A program made the position numbers and the translations under genes. Below, piece after piece: positions 8,741 to 58,153 of a stretch of DNA of 64,000 bases. Each line of letters begins with the position of its first letter. Position 1 is the stretch's first letter. The notes beneath the pieces are model-generated. The model ran no database searches, was not told the DNA's origin, and saw only the letters and a program-made list of their open reading frames with translations. Origin of the DNA: Allacma fusca (lineage: Eukaryota; Arthropoda; Collembola; Symphypleona; Sminthuridae); assembly GCA_947179485.1 (NCBI GenBank), contig OX359247.1, positions 61,477,131 to 61,541,130 of the forward strand, written 5' to 3'.

Positions 8741-10152
8741 TGTATTTTTTTATTTCGAATTACGGTTTCTATATAAATCTGTTATTATTGATATGCCCGG
8801 GTAGCACGATACCCGGGCCTTTACTAATACAATCAAAATCTCCAATCATTTCAAAAAAAGGGAATTTCTCACCATACTAGATGGATCTAGCTTTCATTCG
8901 GACGAATGATCCATCCCGGGTAACATAATATCCGGCAAGACTAACGCCAACCGACCTTTGGGTCTTGGGCTACTGTCACCCGCCTTCACTTTTCCAATTT
9001 CATGAAATTTCAGGGAAAACAATCAAACGAAACAAATCTGATATAACCACGGAAATGAATTCGATGGTTACTGAGGCCGTGTGAAATGCCTCACCCACCA
9101 GATTTTTTTTGTCTACACACGTAAACCGAAAAGCCAATGTTTGTGGGGCCTGTGTAAAGGATGCACTTTGGATTTTACTCGAGCCATTTTTCCATTAATT
9201 AGGGTCGATTATATTTTTATTCTGCATATCAATGATGCTATGAATGAAATTGATTTTCATAGGAAATGGAAATAATATCACCCAACGGTATTGAAATTAA
9301 ATTGGTTCAGCAATTATTAATAACAAACCATTAATTATCATTACTAATAACCAGGAATTCACATTTGTGAATTTTCCTTCGCTACGCTCCTATACATTTG
9401 GTTATTCTGAATCTAAACTAGTGATCCAATTTTGGGGCCGTGAAAATGTACTACTTGCCCTGCCCAAAATGCCCAAAATCAGGGCATTTTCAAAAGCTGC
9501 CCACGTGCCCAAAAATGGGCATGTGGGCAGTCATTTTGGCCAATTTCAGCTGGGCGGGCAAATACTGCAAGGCATTTTCAATCGAAATACCGTGGATGTT
9601 ATTCGTGTGAGTGTAACAGCAACGGGTTCATAACGGTCAACATAGGCCATCACCGCGGTCAATAGTTAGTCACAGTGACATATTAGTGGTTCGGTATCCT
9701 AATGACTGCAAATTGGGGTAGGTTATGACCTAACACTTATGTGTTCATGTATGCTATCATGTGAATGGCCCCAGCTTTGGCGCAGTAAATGTGGCCAAGC
9801 CGGCCATAGGTTGGGTTCCTGTGGAAGCGATTAAATGTTAGGAAGTATAGGGTTAAAGAAAATGTGGAAACACTTGATTACATTCCTAGCTGCTGCGACA
9901 GCTCACGTCACTAATACTGGATCTAGAATAAAAAATGTATGCAAACGAAACGCGGACGTTAGGTGGTATATGCTGCACATTTCAGGCTCTGTCCCGTCCA
10001 GATACATCTGAATGTGTTTCTATTTGGTGCAATGCAAACATGGGCGCCTGCCTAGATTCTAGGCCCTAGAATATAGGCTAAGGCTCTGGGAAGCTGTAAG
10101 TTCGTCAACGTACAAGGTCATGACATTGATTTTGACCCCACGGGCAGCGTGG
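8741..10152. other. Gene-free region with hairpins
   Basis: No coding exon is seen. Structures present: a perfect hairpin with 9-base arms at 8795-8818, a nested imperfect hairpin at 8881-8914, and a TGCCC-rich palindromic patch at 9450-9560. The last has 15-base arms 9497-9511 and 9516-9530 with one mismatch. Such patches resemble subterminal parts of decayed DNA transposons, but I found no terminal repeats or target duplication. Confidence 0.5.
8795..8818. repeat. Perfect GC-rich hairpin
   Basis: Arms GCCCGGGTA (8795-8803) and TACCCGGGC (8810-8818) flank a six-base loop. It stands out in AT-rich surroundings, and CCCGGGTA recurs near 8915. Confidence 0.7.
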
Positions 10153-10924
10153 TCAAAATGTTCTGATTTTTCCAAGGGGGTCAAAAGTAACTCTGGTATG
10201 CTCGTTGTAAATGTATGAGCGCCCGTCTATTTTGTATGTATGTTCTCGCCCAATTTCCCTATTAATACTCAACGCAGTTTCATCTTGTACAGGTCGAGAC
10301 TCTGCAAGTGGTAAATTTGCTAGCTGATCAGCCGATAGCGGAACCTGTAAATAAAAAATGTATATTATTTAAGTAGATAATATCACACAAACTCTCCCTG
10401 TTATGATGCAAAACACCTCCCATAGCTTCTTTCTTACACCAAGTTTCTCACTTTATACACCACAGTGTTTCCTGATAGTCCGGATTGTTTAGTAGTGCCT
10501 TCCCTAGCGTTGTTAAATGATAATAATACAAAGGGATTAGCTGGAGTTCATCGGAGTTCGGGAGTAATGTCTTAACTTGTATTTTGCAAAACAATAAGGC
10601 TGAAATTAGATATGCAATTTTTGTTTCCATAGATTCTTCTTAAATCATTTGGTTTCATTAGGTTTCGCAGACTCAGAGGACGATATCATTTATGAGGATT
10701 GAGTATCGGAAATTTTCAATAATATATAAATCCTCATCAATGAAATCATCCCATGAGACTGCGAAACCGAATTTATCTTCGAACGTCTCAATCCTTGCCT
10801 TATTGGACTTGGCTTCTCGAAAAAGTTCCCGGATCTCATTGGACATGGTCTCCGAAATTACCCCTGACTGAATGTCATAATAAAATTGGAAGCGAGACTC
10901 GAATTTGTAATTATATATGTGCAT
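10153..10924 (-). CDS. Possible small secreted-protein gene or remnant
   Basis: Three minus-strand open stretches look exon-like: 10673-10924 (83 codons, acidic, helical), 10448-10630 (starts with a hydrophobic signal-like METKIAYLISALLF), and 10153-10344. The last follows a good TTTACAG acceptor and ends in TGA after a stretch containing ADQLANLPLAESRPVQ. I could not join the three with phase-consistent donors, so this may be a decayed gene or two separate ones. It lies just left of the Ty3/gypsy insertion. No family is recognised. Confidence 0.25.
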
Positions 10925-11034
10925 TTCATGCTACATTGTAATCACTTCCATTCTTCTATTTAAAACCTACAATAATAATTAATTATTCAACGCAACTCTG
11001 CTGCACATAATTGCCAAGGATATCTAAATAATAT

Positions 11035-11265
11035 TGTGAGGGTTGGCTCCCCTCACTTAAACTAATGTGTAGGTGAGCCCTGACTCACAGTGGCTCCATA
11101 AGTTTAACGTGAATAAAGGTAATCAGTGGATAATGAAATACGAAGCGGAGTGGTCGCATGGGAGCACGCTCCCTTTTATTTTCGGCGTTTTCCCGATTCC
11201 ATAATTCTCCAATTAACTAATCATCATTTAAATTAATTAAGAGAGTTACCAAAGAGTGACTCTCA
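11035..11265 (+). repeat. 5' LTR of the Ty3/gypsy element
   Basis: It starts TGTGAGGG, ends GACTCTCA and has the same 231 bases as 23874-24104; I found no mismatch reading row by row. It contains AATAAA near 11112. Confidence 0.93.
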
Positions 11266-11268
11266 TTC

Positions 11269-11286
11269 TGGTGGAGGTGCGAGACC
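11269..11286 (+). other. Probable primer binding site
   Basis: TGGTGGAGGTGCGAGACC begins three bases after the LTR. Position and the TGG start fit a tRNA primer; the tRNA was not identified. Confidence 0.45.
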
Positions 11287-12045
11287 TTTTCCCTCCTCCC
11301 TCTCACATCCGCCAAGTTTTTTCGCCCTTTTTTCGGATTCCTTGTGGAGTTTATTTGATTTTGGAAGCCGCGTGGTCCTCCATTCCTTTCAGGGACAAGT
11401 GAATGACCAGCTGGGACGAGACTCGACTCATCGGAGGTTCCCGATTCCTCCGTATTGCAGCTCCCGGGTCTTCGGATTTCCACAGAACAGTGTGAGTAAT
11501 CCTCCGTTCTTTCATTGGTTAAACTAATTTTTTCATTTTTGTGTTTAGGTATCTTCCATTTTTCTCTCCTTACGGCGTGGTCCTCACATTATTAGTGAGC
11601 ACGTGCCATACAGGAATTTACCAGGAGGGACCATACGACGTCAGTGAGGATAAGCTCCGACGGAGGGCTCGGTTCATTACTGTCTCGGCGTTCACCTCCT
11701 CTCCGGAATTCACCCGATTCGTAATTTCGGTTTCCCTGTTGGCACCATCCACTTTTACATTCACGGATCTCCACAAATCTACGGACTCGCAGACCACCGA
11801 TGAACCGAATATACCCAAGTTTTCGATTTTCCGGCTGACGTATCTCCGGTCCCATTCACTGGAACAAGGTTGAACATTCCGAAGAATTCCGGCGCACATC
11901 CATCCCACGGATTATCCCAGAATTTCGTAAGTTCTTTTCCTACATTTTCGGTGGTTACCTTTATTATTACTTTTGAGGTCTAGGTTTTTCCCGACGTTTG
12001 CACTTACCTCCCCTTGTGTCCATCCATCTCTCTTCTCACTCCATC
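11287..12045 (+). promoter_or_regulatory. Leader of the Ty3/gypsy element with likely introns
   Basis: The 760 bases between primer site and gag contain two GT-AG intron candidates. One runs from a GTGAGTAATCC donor near 11491 to TTGTGTTTAG near 11548 (about 57 bases). The other starts at GTAAGTTC near 11928 and ends at an AG near 11980. No long ORF has coding features. Splicing is inferred from sequence only. Confidence 0.35.
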
Positions 12046-13281
12046 ATGGCCGACCATAATGAGACAGAAGAGGAAAAGAAGGATCGGCTCCTACGGTCGC
12101 GGGAATCCGATGAAAAATATCGGCGCCTGGACAAATTCCGGTTGGAAGTTCGCCAATACTCCAGCCAAGAAAACCCAGCATCCTTTATTGATGCCGTGGA
12201 TCACTTTGCCTCGGATCTCTTTGTGACCCCTGACATGGTCATCCGGAACCTCTCCCGTCTCTTCCTGGACTCTCCGGACAAGGATGTCAGGGAGTGGTTC
12301 CAGTCCATATTCCCCCGGATCCGAATGTTCCTGGACAGGAAGACGAAGTCCTCCCAGGAAATTTGGGCCTACGTTTGCGATGAATTGAAGGAGCGGTTCG
12401 ACCACGACCGGTTGAAGGCTGAGAAGCAGGCCGACTTGGATGCATACCGGTATCGGTCCGGCATGACCCCTCACTCCTTCGTCGCTGGTCTCCAGAAACT
12501 TTGCTGGGACCTTGATCCTCTCATGGATGAAGAAGACATCGTGGAAAAGGCTCGTGGGAAACTTCCACTCCGGATGGAATCCTTAGCCATTACTCCCTCC
12601 CGGAACCTTCGGGATTTGGCTAAAAACCTTAAGGGACTCCTTAAGGACCCGGAACTTAACCCCGCCATTCGGACCATCCCTACGCAGTCGTCAGTGGAAC
12701 AGGCCCCTCAACTAGGATCTGTAGCCGTCCGTGCGCTGACGGTGGTCACCTGCGACTACTGTGGTCGTCAAAACCACATCATGTCTCAATGTCGGACAAT
12801 GCTGCGGGATGTCACGGCGGGTAACACACAACGTCTGACTGCTATGGTCAACGCTGGGAAACAAGGCACTCTTGAGGTCAGTCTTCCACCGCAAAATAAT
12901 TTGGTACCTAATTCTCTTTCCTTACAGCCTCCAGTGCAACAACAGCAGTCACCAATGCCAATGACCGACCGACAACCAGCCAACAATATCAATGGTGGAT
13001 CCCGAAACCAACGCGGGAATTTCCGCCGCCAGGATCAGTTCCCTCAGAACAGTCATCCCGGTTACTACCCACCTACGAGTAACTACACCTGTGGCTATCC
13101 TTCTCATCAGGCAGTTACTCCTCTATTTTATTGGGACGGTCAGCAGTACCGGCCTTTCCAGATGCCGGCTCCACAACAGCCGCCGCCCCAACAAGGCTCT
13201 TGGGCGCCACCGACCCCACAACAAAACGTGGGCGCTGGTCCTACTCAGCCCCAACCTACCAACAATCAGGGAAACTGCTAG
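12046..13281 (+). CDS. gag: Gag of the Ty3/gypsy element
   Basis: A 411-residue ORF from an ATG at 12046 (in-frame upstream codons exist, but MADHNE is the likelier start). The N-terminal half is charged and helical, like a retrotransposon capsid: ELKERFDHDRLKAEKQ and SGMTPHSFVAGLQKL. A CX2CX4HX4C knuckle, CDYCGRQNHIMSQC, lies near residues 237-250. The last 120 residues are Gln/Pro/Asn-rich. The end overlaps the pol frame by about 150 bases and pol is in the -1 frame, so Gag-Pol could arise by -1 frameshifting; I did not find a convincing slippery heptamer. Confidence 0.88.
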   Translation: MADHNETEEEKKDRLLRSRESDEKYRRLDKFRLEVRQYSSQENPASFIDAVDHFASDLFVTPDMVIRNLSRLFLDSPDKDVREWFQSIFPRIRMFLDRKTKSSQEIWAYVCDELKERFDHDRLKAEKQADLDAYRYRSGMTPHSFVAGLQKLCWDLDPLMDEEDIVEKARGKLPLRMESLAITPSRNLRDLAKNLKGLLKDPELNPAIRTIPTQSSVEQAPQLGSVAVRALTVVTCDYCGRQNHIMSQCRTMLRDVTAGNTQRLTAMVNAGKQGTLEVSLPPQNNLVPNSLSLQPPVQQQQSPMPMTDRQPANNINGGSRNQRGNFRRQDQFPQNSHPGYYPPTSNYTCGYPSHQAVTPLFYWDGQQYRPFQMPAPQQPPPQQGSWAPPTPQQNVGAGPTQPQPTNNQGNC

Positions 13282-16200
13282 GTCTGACGTGCGGGGACGT
13301 TCAGACCAAGCAGCCTCTCAACCTTTCCCCTCTAATTCAGCAGAGAATTAGGGAACTCAGCCTGTCCAATCAGCCTGCATCCTCTAATTCTCCTAAAATA
13401 ATATCGTTTCCTACGGGATTTACTCCCAACAGTGACACTCCTCCGAGCGCCGAGATCACACCACCACCTACCTTTATTACACCTAGATTACCGGCAACTT
13501 CGTCACCAGTGGCGACATCCGCTATCCCACCGGTAATCTTGCCTATAAAACCAAAATCTCGGGAAACTCCGGTGCTTCCTCCGGAGATACCTCCGGCCCC
13601 GCTAACTTTAACAACAAATCCAGACGAGGTCCCCCGGCCGTCGTCTCCCTCTTTAGGAAGTGGATATTTATCCAATCCCTACATCTTGCCTAAACAATTC
13701 TTATGCAAACGATCCAGAATGGCACTTCGGGCTATTCCGACATGCCTAGACTCGAAGAATAAATTACAGACTTTTACTTTTTTCCCTAATACTACGAGTC
13801 CTCACGCTTATGACTCCGAACGCGAGATTCATGCGGAGTTCACTCGTCTCTCGCATCTAGCCTACTCCAGGCAGGACAGAATTTACCAGTTACGTTTAGC
13901 TGGTTACCGTGTCCGTCTGCCACACTGACACTGGGTCCATGATTTCAACTATGGCTTCGGCGACTGCCGCTTATTTGGAAAACCACTTTCCTAATTCCAT
14001 AGTAATAGTTCCCCATGAGCCCAAGCACTTCTCCACCATTTGTAAATCCATGCAAGGTTCCTTTAATCGATCTGCAATTTTGTTTTTCAGAATCGACGAT
14101 GCGCCGATGTCAAAACACAATTACAGATTCGCCATTATCGAGGAAATGGACACTCTCATCCTCCTCGGGTCTAATTTTCATGATAAATTCGGCTTGGACA
14201 TGAATGTCCGGCGGGGATACACCCGATTTGAGGGACTCGATCCCCTGGCTCACGCCACAGCACATTCTCCAGTCTCAGTCGACGCTACTGATCATAGCCA
14301 GGTAGACTTGGAACCTCCCGTGACTGACTCCCTTGAGTCTATCCGGCGTCTGTCGGACTCCTCCAAACAACATTATCAAAGAAGACACAAACTGGCTGAC
14401 TCTATGGCTCGCCGCATTGCCCGCGGGGATCCCACCGCTGATGCAATCTCCAGCCGAGAATCCGCTACCTCTATACCTACCACTTACGATTCACGTATAT
14501 GCAGTAGTTATGTCTCTTTGTGTGAGGGCTCTTTAATTGCACACTCAAATCTTCCAGGTCACTCAACGGCTCCCTCCGCTCGATCCCACTCTTCGATGTA
14601 CTCTAAGGGACCTACGGAAATTAAGCCCATGACCTGGCGACGCCTGACAATTTACTCAGAGCACCCTGGCTACTCCGGGGACGTCATCCTCACATCCGAC
14701 ATAAACCCGGTTAAGGGATTTTTATTTAAACATTCCATTTTACGTTTGCGAAATGGTAAAGCTCAAATTGCGGTAGTAAACCGTAACCCCTACCCAATTT
14801 ATGTCCCCTCTGTTAGATATATAGGGAAAATCGAACCTTTTACGGGTACCGAAATGAGACATAACTCAAACCCTACTCGCTTCCCAGATCCGGATATTAC
14901 TCCCTTTAAACTTCCTTTTAAGGAAGAGGAGGTCCATTTAGGATCTAACCTCACCTGTGATCAGAGGTATGCCCTCTTAGCTGTAATAAACTCATTTCTC
15001 CCCAATTTTGCTAGATCTGACGACGAGTTGGGTGTGGTTTACTATCCTCCGGTAGTGATTAACACCGGGGATAGTAAACCATTCCATAAGTACTCGTACC
15101 GTCTGGCTCACACCGAACGACAGATCTTAGAGGAACATGTCGCTCGCAACCTAAAATTAGGAGTAATAAAGCCATGTGTATCCCCCTATAACTCACCTGT
15201 AATTGTCGTTTCCAAAAAACCGGACGACTCCGGAGTTGCGCAACATCGGGTTTGCGTGGACATGCGTGAGCTCAACTCCAAAGTTGAGCAAAATACATAT
15301 CCCATTCCACGCATCGATGATTGCCTGGACCACCTAGCAGGTTCCCAATATTTCATCACTTTAGATGCCCTCTCCGGTTTCCTCCAAATGGAACTGTCGG
15401 AGGACAGCAAAATAAAAACTGCTTTCTCAACTCCGAAGGGGAAATTTTGTTATAACCGACTTCCCTTCGGTTACAAAAATTCCCCAGCGGAGTTCCAAGC
15501 AATGATGGATGTAATTTTGGGTGACCTCAAAAATCGCATGTCTTATTTACATAGACGATGTCCTGATTTTTGCGAAGACTTTCGAGGAACTCCTCACACG
15601 TTTCCGCCTTGTGATGCAACGTGCTTCCTCATTTCATTTGACGTTTAAATTAAGGAAATGTTTTTTTTGGGTATCAGGAATTGCACTTTTTAGGACATGT
15701 CATCAGTTGGGAAGGCACTCGACCGGATCCTGCGAAAATCCAGGCGGTCTCCACATTTCCCAGTCCCAAGAGCCTGAAGGACGTTCAATCCTTCCTGGGA
15801 TTCTGTAATTATTACAGAAATTTTGTCCAGGATTTTGCCGGCAAGGCTAAGGCCCTCCACGCACTCACCCGGAAGGAAGTCCCATTTCACTGGGGCCCCG
15901 AGGAGGAGGAGGCCTTCCAGTCCTTAAAAACTGCTATGACGTCCACCCCCGTCCTGGATTTTTTCGACCCCGAGGCCGAAATCCGTTTGGTAACCGATGC
16001 CAGTTATTACCGCATTGGTGGGGCTTGCGAACAATCCAGAGATGGTAAAATCTGGAAGCCCATTGCTTTTACATCTAGACTGTTAAAAGGGGCTGAACTA
16101 AATTATTCCAACCCTGAGAAGGAATGTCTTGCCATTGTAAATGCTTTTCAGGTATTCCGTCCCTATGTTTATGGACGACGGGTCCAGGTGAGAACCGACA

Positions 16201-19052
16201 ATGCGGCTTTAACGTCCCTCTGCACAATGAAGGACCCTCACTCCCGTATTGCTCGGTGGCAGCTCTTTTTGGCGCAGCAAGAGAACATTATTCACGTGCC
16301 GGGAAAACAAATTCCTCACGCAGATTGTCTCTCACGCTACCCAATTCGGTCGCTTACACTCCCAGTCCCATATTTAACCCGCCATCAAATTACGGAGGAC
16401 GAACCAGTAATTCAGGCGGTCCTCGGTGGAAATGTGGAGGCTTTCGTTGAGCACCAACAGAAGGACGCCGCCCTAAAAGCTGTTATTGACGATCTCCAAA
16501 TTAATGGTCAAAATGACGGACTTCAGGGTAATAAATTTTCCAAACAATTTGCTCTAATTTCTAATCTTTTATTCCGTATAGACAATTCCTCTTGCGAGCC
16601 TTACAAACTCGTCATCCCACCGACGCTTCGGGGACCAATCCTCAAGTTGGCTCATGACGACGGTCTGGATGGAGGTCATGTGGGTCTATACAAGACCTAC
16701 CAGAAACTCTACCGACGATATTATTGGCGTCGCATGAAGGAGGACATCTTGGAGTACATAAAAGGATGTACCACCTGCCAGGCTGGAAATCCCCGTACAA
16801 CAAAACCTCATGGACACATGAAAATTGTCCCACCTCCTGATAATGTTTTTACCCGTGTAGCTATCGACTACGCTGGGCCCCTTATAACATCCAGGTCAGG
16901 TAACCGATATATTTTTGTGGCAATCGACCACACCAGTAGGTTCGCATGGGCGGCGGCCACTCCTACAGCAACTGCGGAGGACTCCGTACGATTGCTCAAA
17001 AAATTAATCTTTGAGCAGATTGGAGTGGTGCCCCAAATTGTCTTAGACAACGGCCCTCATTTTACCGGTAAGGTGTTTACCGAATACCTAAAAAAGAAAG
17101 GTGTTCAACATATCCGTATTATGCCCCATCATCCCGAGTCGAACGGGAATGTCGAGCGCAATAACCTCGAAATTAAGCGATATTTAAAAAAATATGTTTC
17201 ATACCACAGGGATGACTGGGATGAGCATTTAGGTAAGGCTTGCAAAAGCCACAATATGCACGTACATGCTGTGACCCAATACACTCCCTTCAGTCTTGTC
17301 TACGCTGTCCAACCGAAGACTCAGTTAGACTTAATGACCCCGGTGATTACCATTGCATCCCCCAACTCTCCGTCCCAGTTAGAGACTACTCGGCGGGATC
17401 GAGTGTTCCGTGCCAACTTGAACACGACAAAGTCGCAGGAACAACGGGCGAAAAGATTTAATCTTAATCGACCTCTTAATAATTTTTGTTTAGGTCAATT
17501 AGTCTGGGTTCAGGATACCCAAGCCTCGGGACTTGACCTACGATGGATTGGTCCCTATCAAATTGTCAAGGTACGTGGAGACACGTCTTTCTCGGTGGCT
17601 TATCGTGGCAACAACCGTCGAGCCCACACCCAGAGAAATGTCCACTCCCATCGGCTGAAGCCATACCTTCCTCCAGTAGCTTGGCAAGGTCAGTACGATG
17701 ATTTATTCGTACACAAAACTTTGGCCGAGTTCCATCCTCACAGATCATCTGAGCGTACTATTATCCGGGAACCACCCCAGTATGCACCTGTTGTTAAAGA
17801 CGTCATCTCCCAATATGGTGACAGCCAAGACTCCGGATGCGACTCACCAATCCGGTCTCGTACCTTTTATAATAGTACCAGGAGCTCTGCTAATTCAGGT
17901 ACCCCGTCAGGGGACTTAACCCACCACTCTTCCGAGGGTGAGTATTTACCTCCTCACTCGACAGGTGCGGATACTGTTCGCTCTCCGATAGTCGCTCGCC
18001 TGCGTTCGAGACGGGAATCAGGAACGGCTGAGACCCCTCCTACTATTACTCCCATACCAATTTCTCCAGGTAATCCTACCCCTGTATACAACATCACTCA
18101 TTTCTACAATATGCTCGGAGGGCCGCCTAATTCTTTTCTGCAGGTGGGCGCCTCACTTCCCTCGGCTACCCCCAACCTACCGTCTGAAACCACTGTTGTT
18201 GAGCGGACTGAGGAATCCAACATCCCTAGCCCCACCAATGCTCCACAGTTGATAGACGAGTCAATCCCGGTAGAAAACTTTTATTTTGGTGATAACCGGA
18301 ACGGCGGTGCGGAACCGCCTCCGACTTTATCGCCCAACCCTCCGATAGGATTTCCTGTCAAATCCCCTCCTCAGGTTCGTGCTACCCCTCTTACAACTGA
18401 CACGACACCCTTTCGCTTTTCCAATGTCTCCGCTATCTGTGACCAAAATATACTGGCCCCGCCATTTCCCGGTGCCACGGCGGCGAAGCCTCCGGTCAGG
18501 TCCGTGACTCCTGGGCGTATTAGTTTCAAGCCAGTCAATTATATCCCTCCGGTTTTTAACCGGAGTGCCGAAGAACTTTACTTCGCTGACCCCAATCAAC
18601 CGGGTCCCACTTCCACTGTCTCTACAAATGACTATCCATTTCCTGCGAGTATTGATTACAACATCATCCCCACAGGCCCTACCGATTGCGAAGTTGTTCT
18701 TAAACAACTTGATCAGGTTGTCCCAGTCCCGTCCGTGTGTCTCCAACCCTTTGAATTTACCTCACCTGGTAATTCCCGGAGATCGCCTCCGACACACTCA
18801 CCTGTTCGATCTTCGAACATTCCGGAGACTCATGTAAGCTCCGAAATGTTCACGGCATCCCATGGACTGTCCGGGCATCTCGAATCCTCCGAGATCATAC
18901 CCTCTCGGGTATTTCACTCATCCACACATAACTTGTCAAAGTCTCATTCTGAACAAAACACTAATGTTCATGACCTCTCTTCTTTACAGGAGTCTCCGAT
19001 TACCCCTGCCGAGGATAAAAGTCCGGCGATCGAGCCCTCAGGAAATAATTAA
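13131..19052 (+). CDS. pol: Pol of the Ty3/gypsy element, with frame breaks
   Basis: Reading order: a Pro-rich linker (13131-13928), aspartic protease with DTGSMIS near 13924 and a later LLGSNF, reverse transcriptase (about 15080-15800), RNase H (VTDAS near 15990, NPEKECLAIV, TDNAAL), and integrase. The integrase has an HHCC finger (about 16650-16800) and a DDE core (VAIDYAGP, VLDNGPHF, ESNGNVERNN), then a GPY/F-like module (RWIGPYQIV) near 17540. The frame changes three times: near 13910 at the protease, near 15530 in an A-run just before the YIDD box, and near 15665 in a T-run just after it. These may be real inactivating indels or homopolymer errors. After the integrase the ORF runs another 450 residues of Pro/Ser/Thr-rich sequence, unusual for Ty3/gypsy. 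Confidence 0.9.
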
Positions 19053-20159
19053 TCCACCTTTAATTTTTACTCCCGCAGGTCCACAGCAGTCACAGTTGAC
19101 CCCGCCTCGGATGGACTACTCCCCGTACCGGCTGCCACCGAATCCACGGACAGTCATAACTCCACCATCCTCCACGTCTACGGTAAAGCCGACACAATCC
19201 CGCTTACACTCCGCTCGGGATTCCGTCGCCATGCAAAAGCAAAAAAAGAAATTACGGAAACGTGACCGCAAGGCCACGTCAACCGCAGACACGGCTGCAT
19301 CATCCACAGCGGTTGGTGAGGTTACCGACCCCGGTATGGGTAATGTATCTCAACGCTCCTTTGCGGAGGTTGTTAAAAGTCATGGGTATACGTCATCACA
19401 AGAAATTCCTAGTGTTGGAAAATTTAGGGATCCTACTTCACGTCCGGGTCATGCAATTTTGGATTTATTCCGGTCTCCTCAGGAGGCTCCCCGCACCCCG
19501 TCTAAAATTCCCATTTCTAACATTTCTCTTCTTTCCCATACCCATTCCGGCGACTCGCTGACGAGTGGGCGTGTCACAATAGGCGACATCCCACTCGTCA
19601 ATCCATTCTTGAGCCCTCGAAAATCTGTAAATCCTGCAGGTCTGGCTCCATTATCTCTAAAAAATCTAACTCGGGTACTTCTTTGTTTATTCCGACAGGT
19701 ATTCCCACCGACGGACCAATAGGTGCTCCAAATGTGCGGGACGCACTCATCCCCACCCTAGGGGGAGGTTCGGGTGTTCCCGAAAAATTATCGTCGGTGC
19801 CACCGACCAGAGTGGGTGTGTCACCCGTAGTACACTTTCCAGGGAGACCCCTGCTCCCCATCAAAAAAACGGCGCCAAAGGTGTTGGCGGAAATACCGCC
19901 CCCCGAGGTAACGCGACCCTTGCCGGTGCCCCCGGTCACTCACAGAGTCTCTGTAAAGGGTCCTCATGAGAAGCTTCCCCGCCCATCTAAATTGCCAGGA
20001 CTGAAGAGCACAACCCCATCAAAGCGGGTGCCTCAAGAATCCGCAATTACGGGCCAAGTTGCTCATCCGGAAACGGAGGATTTTGGTTGGACAACAGTAC
20101 CGCCCAGAAAAGCCTCCACCGCCGTTGCGAAAAAATCCTTTTCGCAAAGCCCGGGCTGA
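18862..20159 (+). CDS. Proline-rich continuation beyond pol in two more frames
   Basis: From 18862 one ORF (to 19722) and from 19683 another (to 20159) carry on the Pro/Ser/Thr-rich composition seen at the end of pol, with a basic patch QKQKKKLRKRDRK near 19240. No membrane segment, signal peptide or envelope feature is seen, so this is not an obvious env. Several CAG acceptor-like sites (near 18990, 19078 and 19699) could allow spliced joining. Function unknown. Confidence 0.45.
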
Positions 20160-21642
20160 TCTGACATTCGTCCTCCGGAAAGCAGGAGATACCCGAGTCG
20201 GAACCGGAAGCCCCCAGAAAGGCTTCAGTCGGGTCGTAAATAATCTTCAGAACTTGATTTCGTGTATCGGGAATCATCTGTAAGGTTTTATTTTTTTTTT
20301 ACTATTATACTTAAATCCCTTAATCCCTTACACATTTTTACACACGTCCCCTCCGATCTTCACTCGAGCGAGCGACTGTGTTGTAATGTAGTAAGCTGGT
20401 CGACCGTTCTCCAACGTCCCCGCTGCTTACGTTTACCTACAAAAGCCTACGGGCTTAAAGGTCATTTTTTTTAGTCCCTCATTTCACATCAATGGCACGG
20501 GCAAACACCGGGACTATACACGATTCGAACGAGAGTGCCTGCTGTATATATTTCCCTTTTACATTATTAACATATATCCCCACGCCTGGATTGGCCCCTC
20601 CTTGCTAGGCGGCCGCTTTATCCTTTCCATATACTTAAGATAACTAAATATTTAACCTGAAAGAGCACCAGGCTCCACATATTTAGGGCTCCTCTAAAGC
20701 CCCCATACACATTATACACTATACCATACGCGTATATTATTTTACATACATTTTTTTTGAACATACACATACATATACACTCCTACGAATGGCCGGATTC
20801 TATCCTCCAGCCTCCCGTATAGGTATACCATTAATGGCCCCCGCCATGTCATACGGCGTGCGGCGTCATCCTTCCCTTCCTTTCGGGGATTTATCTTTGT
20901 TGGGCTTCTCCTTTCTTCACCTTGACCTTCAATACATTGGAGTCCTGAATAGTGTGACGGTAGAACCGTCCATACAGTTAGGGGAGAGGGAGAGGAACGA
21001 CCACATTCCTTACTACAATTCAATTTTTATTAACATTTGAATACCTTTTTGTGGCTATCGCCACTAATTTACCTAAAAATACAAGAGCCTAAAATACTCA
21101 ATATGCCAAATCGGAAAAATTTCCTTCCAATTTCAATATAACTTACCACTTCAACCTTGCAAGATAAAGCCGGTCGTCAAACCTTTTGTCCGGACCGTTT
21201 ATCTCTAAAATCCCTAAGGCACTCACACAACGTCCTTACCCATCGTACGACATTCCTATTTAAATAATTTCCTACCAGGAAATATCCTACACAAATTATT
21301 TCATAAGTCTGGTCCTCTTGGACCCTTCCATCCATTTTTATAACTCATTCCAAACTTACCTGAGCTACCTTGTGGCCGTCTCCAATTCTTCTCTCCACGA
21401 AAGTTAACTACTGCCACTCTGTTCCCTTCGGACTCTACTCCTTGAATCTTTCCTGAAGCTTTCACATACAAGGTCCGGCATGTAAGTATATACTCTTTTT
21501 ATTTTTTGCCGGTCGGAGGTAATTTTGGGGCTCCATGACCCCTACACAGGACACTTTTGTTAATTTAGTAGTGGCCGGACTTTGCCTGGTTTAATTAAAA
21601 TACGAGGTTCATTCTAAGTCCCCCGTTATATTTTAAATTAGT
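20160..21642 (+). other. Non-coding spacer inside the Ty3/gypsy element, with a possible leader exon and intron
   Basis: There is no coding signal across 1.5 kb. Toward the right, a pyrimidine-rich stretch ends in a GTAAGTATA donor near 21481, and a TTAAATTAG acceptor lies directly before the ATG at 21643. The arrangement suggests a separately initiated, spliced transcript for the next ORF. Confidence 0.4.
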
Positions 21643-22704
21643 ATGGCTCAACAAGTACTTTGGAGGGGCACCCCTGTCCTCCCCTCTCGGCTCTGTGATG
21701 CGATCCTACAGCGCAAAATATTTGCCCGCATTCAAACTCATGCGTTCTATCTCGCCCGAGCTAATCCTCAGTGTCCCTCGGAGTGCTCCGACCTCCTTCA
21801 TTCGGTCCAACATCACCTCACTACTATTTGTCCCTCCGGTCACCTCCTGCAGGTCTACAGGGAGGAATGGATGGGGCTTTACCTCCGGTTACTCGACACT
21901 GATTCTAACATCCGATTGGATGTCCGGGTCATGGATGTTCGCGTGGATCTACCTACCGACCCTTCCTACACTACTGCCGAAATTTTGACGGATCTCGACA
22001 TTCTTCGAAATCACCTCGGTAAAGCCGGATGGCCCCGTTTTGTGGTACTGACGCGGGTTCTCACACTGAAAAACGATCTTCCCGCGCTATTCTGTTTTCA
22101 TTGTGCTTCTTCCAACCACATAGAGGATGACTGCTCAGCGGCACCCGCCAACGATCTGGCAATGAGCACCATGCATGACCGTCTGTCCCGTCTTCAACAT
22201 CTGGTGTTCCGGACTGAAACATTTCTCTCGAAAAAATCAGATCCGGCCACCCCATGGCGGGAGATCGACGTTCTTGAGACCATTCCCGAAACCGAGCCGA
22301 ATCCTGGCTCTTCCAACAGATCATCCGCAGATTTTTTCACTCTCATGGGAAACACAGTCCCTGAAGTCACCATAACCGTTCAGGGCGGATATTCAAAACA
22401 ATTTCACCGGTTGGTGTTGGTTACCCACTCACCGTTACTCCATTCGAAATTGGCGAAAACCACTAAATCCTCACACCCCGACGCCTATGCAATTGAATGG
22501 CCAGCTTGTTCCCCGGAAACTCTAAATTTGCTCTGGCAATTCCTGTATCACGGAAACGTCTCCATTCCCCCCGACAGTTACGAGGAGACCCTCGCGCTCT
22601 TTGAACATTTGGGAATCAAGCATTTTCCCACCAAACCCGCTCCGACGGACTCCGTGTCAAGAGCAACGGCATCGGCTCATCCACCGGCCGAGAAAAACCC
22701 CTAA
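21643..22704 (+). CDS. Accessory ORF of the Ty3/gypsy element: zinc knuckle plus BTB/POZ-like domain
   Basis: An uninterrupted 353-residue ORF. Residues 1-150 are helical with no family I recognise. Residues 151-164 form a CX2CX4HX4C knuckle (CFHCASSNHIEDDC), the retroviral nucleic-acid-binding type. Residues about 241-327 read like a BTB/POZ fold: EVTITVQGG, FHRLVLVTHSPLLHSKL, SPETLNLLWQFLYHGNVSI, ETLALFEHLGI. These follow the BTB order of first strand, HR.VL..SP.L helix, SPE...L..FLY.G segment and final helix. BTB domains mediate dimerisation or Cullin-3 binding. The ORF is on the same strand as gag-pol and inside the LTRs, so it belongs to the element. It is intact while pol is broken. I infer capture of a host BTB gene joined to a Gag-type knuckle. 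Confidence 0.75.
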   Translation: MAQQVLWRGTPVLPSRLCDAILQRKIFARIQTHAFYLARANPQCPSECSDLLHSVQHHLTTICPSGHLLQVYREEWMGLYLRLLDTDSNIRLDVRVMDVRVDLPTDPSYTTAEILTDLDILRNHLGKAGWPRFVVLTRVLTLKNDLPALFCFHCASSNHIEDDCSAAPANDLAMSTMHDRLSRLQHLVFRTETFLSKKSDPATPWREIDVLETIPETEPNPGSSNRSSADFFTLMGNTVPEVTITVQGGYSKQFHRLVLVTHSPLLHSKLAKTTKSSHPDAYAIEWPACSPETLNLLWQFLYHGNVSIPPDSYEETLALFEHLGIKHFPTKPAPTDSVSRATASAHPPAEKNP

Positions 22705-23433
22705 TTTACGTTGTTGCTTCTACAATAATATTTTTTCCTCCTCTCAAACATTTCTATAAATTTTTTGTGTACTTGAGGGAGGCTGTCGCAATTTTTTCTC
22801 TGCCCTTCAAGCGCCACCTAGCAAGTGCAGGCCGAACCCGCTAAGTACTTAACTATTATTGTTCAATCATAACATTTCTGTTAATTCAGCTCATTAAAAC
22901 TCTTAAATGTAAAGGTAATCGCCTGAGTACTTTCGGCTATGTACGCCTTCTTTGGCATATACATACGCACTTGCATTCCGTCTTCACGTTCGAATTAAGT
23001 GTATCGGTGTACTCCTTACAACCATTACTTACAGTGGATCCCCAATAGCCTTACCCCTCTTATCATTATGGTTACAATACCACGTAATGTATATCTATAC
23101 CAAGCTCTCACCGTACGTACGGTCCACTTCAACAGTACACCTTCCCTTTACCTTTCCTCCCTCTCACTCACTCATTCCCATTTCAGTCTCCGTGCCGCAC
23201 AGTCGTTCACTGCACGCGCTCTATTCTCCCTTTCTTGCATACGCATTTTCAGTTTCATAAGCGTCGGTCTCCGACTCCTTGCGTATTTTCTCCGACTTGT
23301 GAGTAACAAATTTAATTTTTGTGAGCCTGTACTCGTTGCTAATATTTTTTTTGGTGTGAATAATGTGTGTTGTGTAATCCTTCTTATTCCATTTTGTTTA
23401 TTTTTTGTTGTTGTTGTTTTGGTTTTCCAGGAA
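22705..23433 (+). other. Spacer and intron before the second accessory ORF
   Basis: It contains pyrimidine-rich leader-like sequence. A TTGTGAGTAAC donor lies near 23297, and a TTTTGGTTTTCCAG acceptor ends at 23430, three bases before the ATG at 23434. The intron would be about 132 bases. No independent ORF is convincing. Confidence 0.45.
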
Positions 23434-23904
23434 ATGGCCGACACTACTTCTCCCAGTCTGGTGGACCTGAAATATGTGCGCAATGTGCAGATAACTGCAA
23501 GCGAGATACTCCTTGGTCTCGAACGTTCAGATCTTCAGCACGCCCGTGATCATCTTCGGTTTCTTCGGCAGGAGTTTTTGCGGTTCATCCCTCCAAGCCC
23601 GTTCTTGAGTTTCGCCGAACCTATCCAAGCTCACGGATCAAACGTTCACCTTATTCAGGCCATCATCGCTGATTTACATATACTTCCAACGGCGCTCTCG
23701 GACCCCGATTACATCATTTTGGGTCATCTAACGTCCCTTACGGACCTTCTCTGGTTAAACTTAGAACAGGAAATTCTTCACCCCGACCAGGTCCGCACCA
23801 ATTTTTGTTCGCCTTCCCCACACTTTCCCCTACGGGCTTTCACTGGGACAGTGAAAGTGGTGGTGGGGGAAGATGTGAGGGTTGGCTCCCCTCACTTAAA
23901 CTAA
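23434..23904 (+). CDS. Second accessory ORF, ending inside the 3' LTR
   Basis: 156 residues from an ATG directly behind a strong splice acceptor. The frame is open further upstream to 22999, but that part looks like intron and leader. The protein is mostly helical and leucine-rich (ASEILLGLERSDLQHARDHL, TDLLWLNLEQEIL), without cysteine motifs, signal peptide or membrane segment. Its last residues cross the polypurine tract, and the stop lies in the LTR. No family recognised. Its MAD- start behind an intron mirrors gag. Confidence 0.55.
   Translation: MADTTSPSLVDLKYVRNVQITASEILLGLERSDLQHARDHLRFLRQEFLRFIPPSPFLSFAEPIQAHGSNVHLIQAIIADLHILPTALSDPDYIILGHLTSLTDLLWLNLEQEILHPDQVRTNFCSPSPHFPLRAFTGTVKVVVGEDVRVGSPHLN
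23851..23873 (+). other. Polypurine tract
   Basis: The purine-rich run GTGGTGGTGGGGGAAGA directly abuts the 3' LTR, as expected for the plus-strand primer of an LTR element. Confidence 0.75.
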
Positions 23905-24104
23905 TGTGTAGGTGAGCCCTGACTCACAGTGGCTCCATAAGTTTAACGTGAATAAAGGTAATCAGTGGATAATGAAATACGAAGCGGAGTGGTCGCATGG
24001 GAGCACGCTCCCTTTTATTTTCGGCGTTTTCCCGATTCCATAATTCTCCAATTAACTAATCATCATTTAAATTAATTAAGAGAGTTACCAAAGAGTGACT
24101 CTCA
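23874..24104 (+). repeat. 3' LTR of the Ty3/gypsy element
   Basis: 231 bases identical to 11035-11265. It is followed by AAATAAAATC, which is not a clear duplicate of the left flank. Confidence 0.93.
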
Positions 24105-24308
24105 AAATAAAATCAAAATAAATAGGATGGTACATAAATTTACGTAAACTGAGAGGTTTTCAATTGAAAACAGCATATATATTAGCAAATTGAATTTGAT
24201 CACTTAATTTCTTTATTACAACTTTTTCATTACAAATCGTTAAGATAAATTCCAGCTTACCATTACAGTAATGAGAGGCACATACTAACTAATTAAAAAT
24301 ACAAGACT

Positions 24309-25621
24309 CTACATATTCATTTTTAGCAGACTATGGTCACTCATATGCAGGCTATTCCATTTGTAAGGATCTATGCTAATGATGCGATAACCCATGATTT
24401 CCAAATATCTCTTCATTAGAACATGTTTTCCCTTCAGCTTCCGCTGGTTACTAGAAAAGTCCTTGGGTCTGTGAACAATCATTGCTATCCTCGCTCCCTC
24501 TACTTTTTCTTGACTAGTTTTCGAACTAATTTTAACGGGTTGGCCGAATTCATTGAGTTGAAGTAAAAAATCTGTAAGAAACCATTTAGGGATTGTTGAT
24601 AAAACTTTTTCAAACATAATTCATAAAACACAGAAGTTATGTTACTTTAATGACATTGAATTACCTATCGGATAAAAATAAGGTGAATAGGTTCTTCTAG
24701 TAAAATATCCATTTCCTACAACATCCTCTAAAACCTGGGCAACTTCAGAGTGTAAATAAGTTTCTCTTCGGTAACCTTCTGCAGTCATTCAAATGCAGCA
24801 ATTTAACAATAGAATATTACATATTTGTAATATGTTGTCAATTGTGCTAATAAAGCAGCATAATAATTTGCATTCACTTACCGATTGCTACTACTTCTAT
24901 GCAATATTTCTCATGAAACCACGGAACATTTGCTTCAGGCATGTCCAAACACACCACCCTATGTAATTCCATGAAAACATCCCGCAGTCTCCAAGGTATT
25001 AGCGAAATCTGAAAAGTTGTTCATAAAGCGTCAAAACTCTACTAGAATACTAGAGCTACTCGAACATGATTATTACACTTATTCAAGCTTACTTACATAA
25101 TGAGTAGCTTTAATATATTTGTCCACTTCATCAAGAAACCTCAACGCAAAATGTCTTGGCAACCGTTTCTCTATCCAAATAACCTTGGAAACAAAGAGCC
25201 AAGGCGGACTCTAATAATGGAAGCGGATGCATTTCGTGTGAATTCGTTTAATAACATATAACACTTATAAATTACCTCAGAATTAATTTAAATGAGAAAT
25301 GAGAGATGTTAACGAGTATTGCATTTGCCAGTTCTTTAAAGCATTACCTAGTAATAAATTCGAACGCTTTCCTCAATGCCTTTAATACCTTCCACCCCAA
25401 AAGTGAAGCAAGCCCACAAAAACCTCTCCTGAGAGGCTCCAAAGAATGACTGAGACGTCATTTGGAAACTCGCAGATTATTTTCGATACTCTTTCAAATG
25501 GCCCCCTTAAGATGTCAAATGTCAACAGTAATTCGTGTAGCACTTCTCCCCACACATTTCTTTCGCACTTATCTCCTGCATTTTTCGGAATAAACAATTT
25601 ATTTATCGGAAACTACTGCAC
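24309..25621 (-). CDS. FAST-kinase-domain-like protein, C-terminal part with RAP domain
   Basis: Exons 25097-25210, 24882-25008, 24665-24778 and 24309-24571 join in frame. The last carries a RAP domain (RIAMIVHRPKDFSSNQRKL, then HVLMKRYLEIMGYRII, DPYKW). The second holds a FAST_2-like stretch (FMELHRVVCLDMPEANVPW). FASTK-family proteins bind and process mitochondrial RNA. A further open stretch at about 25382-25621 is probably an upstream exon, but I cannot join it with matching phase. Beyond it lies repeat DNA, and no N-terminal exons are visible. About 210-290 residues are seen against 500-800 usual, so this is likely a truncated copy or has distant 5' exons. Confidence 0.65.
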
Positions 25622-26160
25622 CGATTTCAACCAATATTGAACTCCGCTGAGCTATGTAGTTGAAGAGCATGTGTACCAAGTTTGGCGGAAATTGGTGTAG
25701 TAGCTTTTAGAAAGTGAAACTTTCTAATAGACGAGTCTGTTCCGTCCGTCCGTCTACAAAATCTTGTGAGTCGCACAACTCAACGACGGAATGACACGGA
25801 CGTAGGACTTGTCCCAAAACATCGGGCATGCATTCTAAATGTGCCTTTTGGTATTTTCCCTGACCCAGGGGCAACTGTTTGACCTCAGAAAATTATTTTC
25901 TGGATACAATTATCAAAAAAACTTGCATTTGCTATATCTTTCCAACGGATCGACATATGGACATGCGTCCTTTACATATAACAATCCAACTATATTTCCC
26001 TACCCTACTATAAATCTTTAAATATAAGTTTCACTTTCCTGCAAACAAAGTATGCCCAAATCAGTGCAGTGCACGGATTTTTCTTTATTTGTTTCCACGG
26101 ACCACCCTTTGTACAGATGTACGGACGTACGGACACGCACAATCACTAGAATGCCGCTTA
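25590..26160. repeat. Dispersed-repeat fragment with inverted motif
   Basis: AACTACTGCACCGATTTCAA near 25611 and its approximate reverse complement near 25683 (GGAAATTGGTGTAGTAGCTT) form an inverted pair. CCGTCCGTCCGTC runs near 25741 and a second CGGACGTACGGACAC run lies near 26123. Such C/ATTTCAACC plus CCGTCCGTC words are common in arthropod interspersed repeats. Boundaries are approximate. Confidence 0.45.

Positions 26161-56473: not shown

Positions 56474-58153
<1,680 letters not shown>

What the first reader, a model, noticed from the sequence alone, without database searches (positions are those of the whole stretch)
21643..22704. LTR retrotransposon ORF that fuses a Gag-type zinc knuckle to a BTB/POZ-like domain
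Seen: an intact 353-codon ORF between pol and the 3' LTR with CX2CX4HX4C at residues 151-164 and a BTB-like pattern at 241-327 (HR.VL..SP.L, then SPE.L.LLW.FLY.G, then a closing helix ending LGI). Known: Ty3/gypsy elements carry gag, pol and sometimes env; BTB domains dimerise or recruit Cullin-3. Inference: the element captured a host BTB sequence and may use it to target chromatin, form assemblies or redirect ubiquitination.
Basis: partly seen in the sequence, partly recalled or inferred. Interest (0 to 1): 0.88.

Follow-up and report, generated by a model that had tools for sequence, protein, structure and literature searches.

The report
Springtail retrotransposon carrying a BTB gene
A mobile genetic element of a springtail carries an extra gene that joins a zinc knuckle to a BTB protein-interaction domain, and related copies across the genome have kept that domain under selection, which suggests the element uses it in its life cycle.

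Summary
Confirmed, and larger than reported. The 353-codon ORF is the third gene (ORF3) of a 13-kb Ty3/gypsy element with identical 231-bp LTRs. Residues 240-328 are a BTB domain (Pfam 1.9e-10); a CX2CX4HX4C knuckle is present but below Pfam's cut-off.

67 of 95 lie downstream of the element's integrase (0.16 expected). 10 of 13 same-strand LTR pairs enclose both. 6 of 6 scorable sister copies have 4-bp target duplications.

The BTB is under purifying selection (dN/dS 0.10-0.35 in 16 measurable pairs of 28). ORF3 BTBs form one group against 17 sampled host BTBs. BTB modules were swapped between subfamilies; one subfamily has ORF3 without BTB; three close relatives examined lack ORF3 and ORF4.

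Acceptor-like sites precede ORF3 (14 of 17) and a new ORF4 (7 of 7).

Best mechanism (inferred): a CERV/Rev-like accessory protein from a spliced mRNA, knuckle and N-domain binding element RNA, BTB multimerising it or docking host BTB proteins. A CUL3 adaptor role looks unlikely. Five literature searches listed no earlier report.

The parts
11035..24104 (+). whole Ty3/gypsy element copy (pol broken in this copy)
   Evidence: LTR pair; Pfam domains of pol; GC about 0.44-0.53 against about 0.33-0.42 in most of the rest of the window
11035..11265 (+). 5' LTR, TGTGAG..CTCTCA
   Evidence: 231 bp identical to 3' LTR; 40 matches in host
11269..11283 (+). candidate primer binding site (TGG...)
   Evidence: read from sequence; TGGTGGAGGTGCGA(G/C) or one mismatch in the 6 leaders seen; tRNA not identified
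11492..11548 (+). candidate leader intron (GTGAGT ... TTTAG)
   Evidence: GTRAGT donor and YAG acceptor kept in 6 of 6 leaders; sequence only
11927..11932 (+). second candidate splice donor (GTAAGT)
   Evidence: GTRAGT in 5 of 6 leaders
12046..13281 (+). gag, with one CCHC-like motif
   Evidence: ORF; Pfam Retrotrans_gag E 0.0065 and zf-CCHC E 9.5, both below cut-off
13909..19052 (+). pol: RT, RNase H, integrase and a long proline-rich tail; the RT region is spread over three frames, so broken here
21640..21641 (+). AG of candidate splice acceptor just before the ORF3 ATG
   Evidence: (C/T)AG within 20 nt of the ATG in 14 of 17 copies given
21643..22704 (+). ORF3: N-domain, zinc knuckle, BTB
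22093..22134 (+). CX2CX4HX4C knuckle, residues 151-164
   Evidence: ligands kept in 20 of 20 BTB-bearing rows, 0 of 4 F rows
22360..22626 (+). BTB/POZ domain, residues 240-328
   Evidence: Pfam, PDB profile search
23428..23430 (+). CAG of candidate splice acceptor before the ORF4 ATG
   Evidence: 7 of 7 copies given have such a site
23434..23904 (+). ORF4, cut after about 120-127 codons; the open frame runs on through the pre-LTR region into the LTR
   Evidence: full-length 445 and 464 aa in L009 and L010; 107 matches in host
23851..23873 (+). polypurine tract before the 3' LTR
   Evidence: kept in L029 and in the 6 sister copies printed
23874..24104 (+). 3' LTR

Best explanation
Shown: ORF3 is a conserved, selected accessory gene of a multi-subfamily Ty3/gypsy lineage in the host genome (inferred to be the springtail Allacma fusca). 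It encodes an N-terminal domain of unknown fold, a zinc knuckle and, in most subfamilies seen, a BTB domain. Inferred: like CERV of the C. elegans element Cer1, and like Rev, it is made from a spliced subgenomic mRNA (leader donor joined to the acceptor at the ORF3 ATG) and acts in the nucleus on the element's unspliced RNA. Knuckle and N-domain bind the RNA; the BTB multimerises the protein or docks host BTB partners; the outcome is export, protection or packaging of the genomic RNA. ORF4 would be a second spliced accessory gene. I put the shown part at about 0.97 and the CERV/Rev-like action at about 0.4; the confidence given is for that action.
For: 67 of 95 ORF3 places lie downstream of integrase, 0.16 expected; 10 of 13 LTR pairs enclose both; BTB above Pfam cut-off in 8 of 11 ORF3 proteins scanned; BTB dN/dS 0.10-0.35 in 16 of 28 pairs; knuckle ligands in 20 of 20 BTB-bearing rows; leader donor kept in 6 of 6 leaders, acceptor-like AG before ORF3 in 14 of 17 and before ORF4 in 7 of 7; precedent: CERV comes from a spliced Cer1 mRNA, is needed for gRNA export, and is described with a multimerising domain, an essential Cys loop and a G-protein-like domain (PMC10309623, abstract and sections 6 and 15). 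Copies that lack ORF3 also lack the downstream acceptors, as expected if ORF3 serves mainly RNAs with retained introns (inference).
Against: No transcript, localisation or binding data. Acceptor-like AG missing before ORF3 in L018, L024 and L025. The knuckle is below the Pfam cut-off and its ligands change in F. F has ORF3 without BTB, so the BTB is not essential to every form. 19 of 54 places with integrase at 88% or more show no ORF3 match downstream, so ORF3 is not needed in cis. No export signal was looked for and similarity to CERV was not tested. Structure models failed.
Confidence: 0.4

Rival explanations
1. Decoy or anti-silencing: the BTB hetero-oligomerises with host BTB chromatin proteins (Mod(mdg4), Ttk or Lola type) that silence or insulate elements, and disables or hijacks them at element DNA.
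For: After L033, the host BTBs scoring best against the ORF3 BTB profile, in the sample of 18, are L036, L038, L035 and L037 (32.8-36.5 bits), which I take for TTK-type from recall. Mod(mdg4) variants repress a Drosophila retrotransposon (PMC9723646, listing and abstract start only). Module swaps fit an arms race. Subfamily E also carries a C2H2-like tail.
Against: No interaction data; 18 of 153 listed host matches sampled; the alignment shows purifying, not positive, selection at domain scale.
Confidence: 0.2
2. Second structural or packaging protein: ORF3 is a Gag-like nucleocapsid helper in which the BTB replaces capsid contacts.
For: Zinc knuckle of retroviral spacing; weak, non-significant nucleocapsid match at the knuckle (0.085).
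Against: No supported similarity of the ORF3 N-domain to the element's own gag beyond the knuckle; gag is separately present.
Confidence: 0.15
3. CUL3 adaptor: the BTB recruits CUL3 to degrade a host restriction factor, as Vif-type proteins use other cullins.
For: BTB domains of KBTBD4, KLHL3, KLHL11 and SPOP are among the PDB matches (E 2.4e-6, 9.3e-4, 0.01 and 0.009).
Against: phi-x-E motif (recalled) absent at the aligned position in the rows compared by eye; only 25 residues follow the BTB in the window ORF, so no room for a long 3-box/BACK region.
Confidence: 0.07
4. Passenger: a host BTB gene or another element inserted into this copy, with no role in the element.
For: A BTB exon outside any recognised element (L033/L051, C8:47.02 Mb) shares the TLMGN signature; ORF3 is dispensable in cis.
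Against: Same position behind pol in lineages whose integrases are only 65-71% identical; purifying selection; LTR pairs round it.
Confidence: 0.02

Closest known systems
CERV of Cer1 (C. elegans LTR retrotransposon), PMC10309623
   Same: Extra protein of an LTR element from a spliced mRNA (splicing only inferred here), with a Cys-rich nucleic-acid module, a multimerising module and a domain that may come from a cell gene.
   Different: CERV has a G-protein-like domain and an M domain, no BTB is described in the sections read; sequence similarity to ORF3 was not tested.
Bdelloid rotifer LTR elements with captured ORF3 (Vesta, Juno), PMC5408684
   Same: Animal LTR retrotransposons with a non-envelope ORF3 that differs between families and is missing from some.
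   Different: Their ORF3s encode GDSL esterase or DEDDy exonuclease; no BTB in the parts read.
[quoted passage not shown]
   Same: BTB joined to a retroelement-type zinc module.
   Different: The reverse direction: a host gene holding an integrase domain, mostly in chordates; not an element holding a BTB.
Additional ORFs of plant LTR retrotransposons, PMC7264820
   Same: Conserved ORFs between pol and the 3' LTR.
   Different: Env-like or antisense ORFs of mostly unknown role; no BTB in the abstract, the only part read.

Membership tests
Ty3/gypsy LTR retrotransposon (Metaviridae) | Paired LTRs with TG..CA ends | tested here: met
   231 bp identical pair; sister pairs
Ty3/gypsy LTR retrotransposon (Metaviridae) | Pol order RT, RNase H, integrase | tested here: met
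   Pfam RVT_1, RT_RNaseH, Integrase_H2C2, rve in that order, over more than one frame
Ty3/gypsy LTR retrotransposon (Metaviridae) | Short target-site duplication | tested here: met
   4 bp in 6 of 6 scorable sister copies of 7 fetched; the window copy itself has ATAT/AAAT, imperfect
Ty3/gypsy LTR retrotransposon (Metaviridae) | RT or integrase phylogeny inside Ty3/gypsy | not tested
   Only by best matches, some of them named gypsy-type by their sources; no tree built
BTB/POZ domain (PF00651) | Sequence profile above curated cut-off | tested here: met
   8 of 11 ORF3 proteins scanned; L021 only just (21.2 against 20.5); the 3 F proteins have none
BTB/POZ domain (PF00651) | BTB fold | tested here: inconclusive
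   Poor single-sequence models; Foldseek not significant
Retroviral-type zinc knuckle (PF00098) | CX2CX4HX4C ligands | tested here: met
   20 of 20 BTB-bearing rows; 0 of 4 F rows
Retroviral-type zinc knuckle (PF00098) | Profile above cut-off | tested here: not met
   11.9 bits in the window, 16.1 in L020, cut-off 20.8
CUL3 adaptor (BTB-BACK, KLHL or SPOP type) | phi-x-E motif (recalled) and 3-box/BACK region | tested here: not met
   Read by eye for window, B, D and E rows; 25 residues after the BTB in the window ORF
CERV/Rev-like RNA export factor | Spliced mRNA | tested here: inconclusive
   Splice-site sequences only; no transcripts
CERV/Rev-like RNA export factor | Binds element RNA, multimerises, needed for gRNA export | not testable with these tools
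   Needs bench work

The most novel reading that the evidence does not exclude
A retrotransposon lineage acquired an animal BTB domain once and kept it as an exchangeable interaction module. It swaps BTB variants between subfamilies by recombination, so that its accessory protein can engage, or act as a decoy for, a changing set of host BTB chromatin factors, while ORF3-free gag-pol copies use the helpers in trans.
Probability: 0.15. Interest if true: 0.88.

Novelty: new variant of a known kind. Interest (0 to 1): 0.68.

Why it matters
LTR elements with a third ORF are known, but in the searches made here none was listed as carrying a BTB domain, a common oligomerisation and partner-recruiting module of animal chromatin and ubiquitin-pathway proteins. 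Here the module is shared by several subfamilies, under purifying selection, swapped between them, absent from one relative and missing from close gag-pol relatives. This natural series of with, without and swapped makes the role of an accessory gene in an animal retroelement testable.

Tried and rejected
Host gene or nested insertion: rejected. ORF4 as a truncated second BTB gene: I first read the end of window ORF4 as a BTB strand; comparison with L029 showed that this stretch is the conserved pre-LTR region, and full-length ORF4 has no Pfam match. ORF3 and ORF4 N-domains as paralogues: not supported (pairwise score no better than shuffles at standard gap costs; hhalign probability 1.8%, only the Cys cluster aligned; the comparison used a wrong ORF4 frame and is void). 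Gag origin of the ORF3 N-domain: not supported; only the knuckle aligned at BLOSUM62, with 10 of 300 shuffles as high, and 85 of 500 at BLOSUM45. Relatives elsewhere: none among 2005 candidate proteins for the ORF (E<=0.01) or 7998 for its alignment (E<=1) from a collection of about 5.8 billion, none in IMG/VR; these collections need shared words and are not chosen for springtails, so this is weak evidence of absence. Structure: see observation check. tRNA scan of the window (bacterial code) and Rfam scan of 10000-26000 were empty. A host search with the LTR of the ORF3-less type (L029:3731-3955) was asked 13 times and never answered, so I cannot say how many ORF3-less copies have LTR pairs.

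Full report
Observation. The ORF at 21643-22704 is intact, 353 aa. Pfam puts BTB at residues 240-328 with E 1.9e-10 and sees the knuckle at 151-165 only below cut-off. It sits behind pol and before a 3' LTR identical over 231 bp to the 5' LTR. The element's 1-kb bins have GC 0.44-0.53 against about 0.33-0.42 in most of the rest of the window (the first 2 kb are also high), and the ORF3 bins (0.44 and 0.48) go with the element.

Host. The window is C10:61477131-61541130 of an assembly of 392,743,791 bases in 91 contigs. C10 has 66,084,411 bases, the scaffold N50 printed for Allacma fusca qeAllFusc8.1, and the other five large contigs match its chromosome table to 0.01 Mb (PMC10427803, part 1 of 3 of the text read). 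The printed totals differ slightly (392,786,974 bp, 95 scaffolds). I conclude that the host is this springtail and that the window lies on chromosome 3: an inference from lengths.

Is ORF3 a gene of the element? A protein search of the host gave 116 matches, merged to 95 places, the window included. The integrase search gave 109 scored matches out of 2467 candidates, merged to 106 places. 67 of 95 ORF3 places lie within 12 kb downstream of an integrase place on the same strand, against 0.16 expected from random placement on the six large contigs. Both lists hold only the best-scored candidates, so the 28 ORF3 places without integrase may have one that was not scored. Of 40 LTR matches, 13 neighbouring same-strand pairs lie within 30 kb; 10 enclose both integrase and ORF3 matches (whole or in fragments), the other 3 are short (2.8-4.8 kb) and enclose neither. 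Of 7 sister copies whose LTR ends I fetched, 6 could be scored and 6 of 6 have a perfect 4-bp target duplication; LTRs are identical in 4 of 5 pairs compared and differ at one site in the fifth. The window copy has flanks ATAT and AAAT, not a perfect duplication, and its pol is broken, the RT region being spread over three frames. Copies with long open pol frames exist.

Architecture and its variation. I aligned 24 ORF3 proteins. Subfamilies, by identity: A (63-100%), B (38-43%), C (36-37%), D (32%) and E (31-33%), with BTB in each one scanned; and F (28-31%, matched over the N-domain only), with a changed Cys cluster, no BTB and a C2H2-like tail. E has both BTB and a C2H2-like tail (L021 372-393, below cut-off). 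Of 11 ORF3 proteins scanned by Pfam, 8 pass the BTB cut-off (L021 only just, 21.2 bits) and the 3 F proteins have no BTB match. The knuckle ligands are kept in 20 of 20 BTB-bearing rows and 0 of 4 F rows. A profile of the alignment finds BTB chains in the PDB (KBTBD4 2.4e-6, MIZ1-BCL6 8.3e-6, BCL6 2.9e-4, KLHL3 9.3e-4, SPOP weaker at 0.009), and HIV-1 nucleocapsid at the knuckle without significance (0.085).

Selection. Nei-Gojobori dN/dS for the BTB is 0.10-0.35 in the 16 of 28 chosen pairs where both rates could be computed; the other 12 were saturated or lacked a BTB. The N-domain gives 0.05-0.44; the linker goes up to 0.76. The pairs are not independent. This is purifying selection on the BTB as protein in more than one subfamily.

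Module exchange. L013 (B) and L017 (C) differ in the N-domain by dN 0.46 but in the BTB by 0.02. Window and L006 differ by dS 1.85 in the N-domain and 0.26 in the BTB. Window and L012 show the opposite (N-domain dS 0.31, BTB dN 0.38 with saturated dS). The BTB tree puts C inside B, the N-domain tree does not (some of the forks are below the star level). Recombination between copies, for instance template switching (inferred), has moved the BTB between subfamilies.

Origin of the BTB. PF00651 gives 153 matches in the host, ORF3 copies among them. I fetched 18 that are not on the ORF3 list, except that L033 had also matched the ORF3 query over its BTB; one shorter than 75 aa was dropped. In a tree with 20 ORF3 BTBs, the ORF3 BTBs are one side of a 99/99 branch, in 98% of 200 bootstrap trees. 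This fits a single acquisition, for that sample. The best host match to the ORF3 BTB profile is L033 (47.5 bits, next 36.5), a BTB exon with the TLMGN signature and no other element gene found in the 8 kb round it. It may be kin of the donor or a decayed or co-opted copy; the tree does not join it to ORF3.

ORF4. A second ORF follows. It is full-length (445 and 464 aa) in L009 and L010, its L009 form has 107 matches in the host, it has no Pfam match, and its C-terminal Cys/His cluster is seen by eye also in L020, L021 and L025. In the window it is cut after about 120-127 codons, where an internal deletion joins it to the pre-LTR region.

Splicing. In 6 of 6 leaders aligned, a GTRAGT donor and a following YAG acceptor are kept, and a second GTRAGT donor in 5 of 6. 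A (C/T)AG lies within 20 nt of the ORF3 ATG in 14 of 17 contexts given (not L018, L024, L025), and just before the ORF4 ATG in 7 of 7. Many contexts come from closely related copies, and no chance rate was computed. No transcripts could be examined.

Copies without ORF3. Of 54 places with integrase at 88% or more, 35 have an ORF3 match downstream and 19 do not. I fetched 3 of these 19 (L029-L031): after pol comes about 0.8 kb of the shared non-coding stretch (72-73% identical) and then sequence like the window's pre-LTR region and LTR (74-82%), with no further ORF of 100 aa. L032, from a more distant integrase (69%), also shows no further ORF of 100 aa in the 3.9 kb after pol. So ORF3 and ORF4 seem not to be needed in cis. 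They may be supplied in trans, or be needed only by RNAs that keep the downstream splice acceptors; the second idea fits a Rev-like role and is an inference.

Mechanism. The closest worked-out precedent is CERV of Cer1: spliced mRNA, surfaces predicted to multimerise, an essential Cys loop, a G-protein-like domain, needed for gRNA export (PMC10309623, abstract and sections 6 and 15 read). ORF3 has a comparable kit with BTB as the candidate multimer part. I give this reading about 0.4, a decoy for host BTB chromatin proteins 0.2, a second structural protein 0.15, a CUL3 adaptor 0.07 (motif recalled and not met), a passenger 0.02; the rest is other.

Novelty. Five full-text searches (20 of 57, 20 of 60, 20 of 83, 1 of 1 and 12 of 12 papers listed) showed no report, in titles and abstract starts, of a BTB domain in an LTR element; a sixth on springtail elements (11 of 11 listed) likewise. 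The library lacks most subscription papers. Rotifer elements with captured ORF3s (PMC5408684, abstract and section 3.3 read) and plant additional ORFs (PMC7264820, abstract read) make this a new variant of a known kind. The opposite fusion, BTB host genes with an integrase zinc domain, is known (PMC12062965, passages read).

Noticed in passing
23434-23904; L009 and L010 for the full-length form: A second accessory gene, ORF4 (445-464 aa), with a Cys/His-rich C-terminus and no Pfam match; cut in the window copy by an internal deletion.
   Followed up: partly
L029, L030, L031 (C1:25.16 Mb, C9:35.01 Mb, C8:46.31 Mb): Close relatives (integrase 95-97% identical) without ORF3 and ORF4, with sequence like the LTR soon after pol; several integrase matches of this kind have equal scores, which hints at recent amplification.
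   Followed up: partly
L013 against L017; window against L006 and L012: BTB and N-domain have different histories: recombination swaps the BTB module between subfamilies.
   Followed up: yes
L024, L025, L027, L028: Subfamily F: ORF3 with N-domain and C2H2-like tail but no BTB, followed by an ORF4 relative ending in a CCHC-like knuckle (L025).
   Followed up: partly
L051 (C8:47015800-47023800): A lone BTB exon with the ORF3-like TLMGN signature and no other element gene found nearby: donor kin, or a decayed or co-opted copy.
   Followed up: partly
23838-23856: Inverted repeat TTTCACT-GGGAC-AGTGAAA just before the polypurine tract, also in L029; role unknown.
   Followed up: no
C12:667308-690365: An LTR pair 23 kb apart round integrase and ORF3: perhaps a copy with a further insertion.
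   Followed up: no
56867-57637: ORF of 256 aa that I take from recall for a QTRT2-like (queuine tRNA-ribosyltransferase accessory subunit) exon; no call tested this.
   Followed up: no
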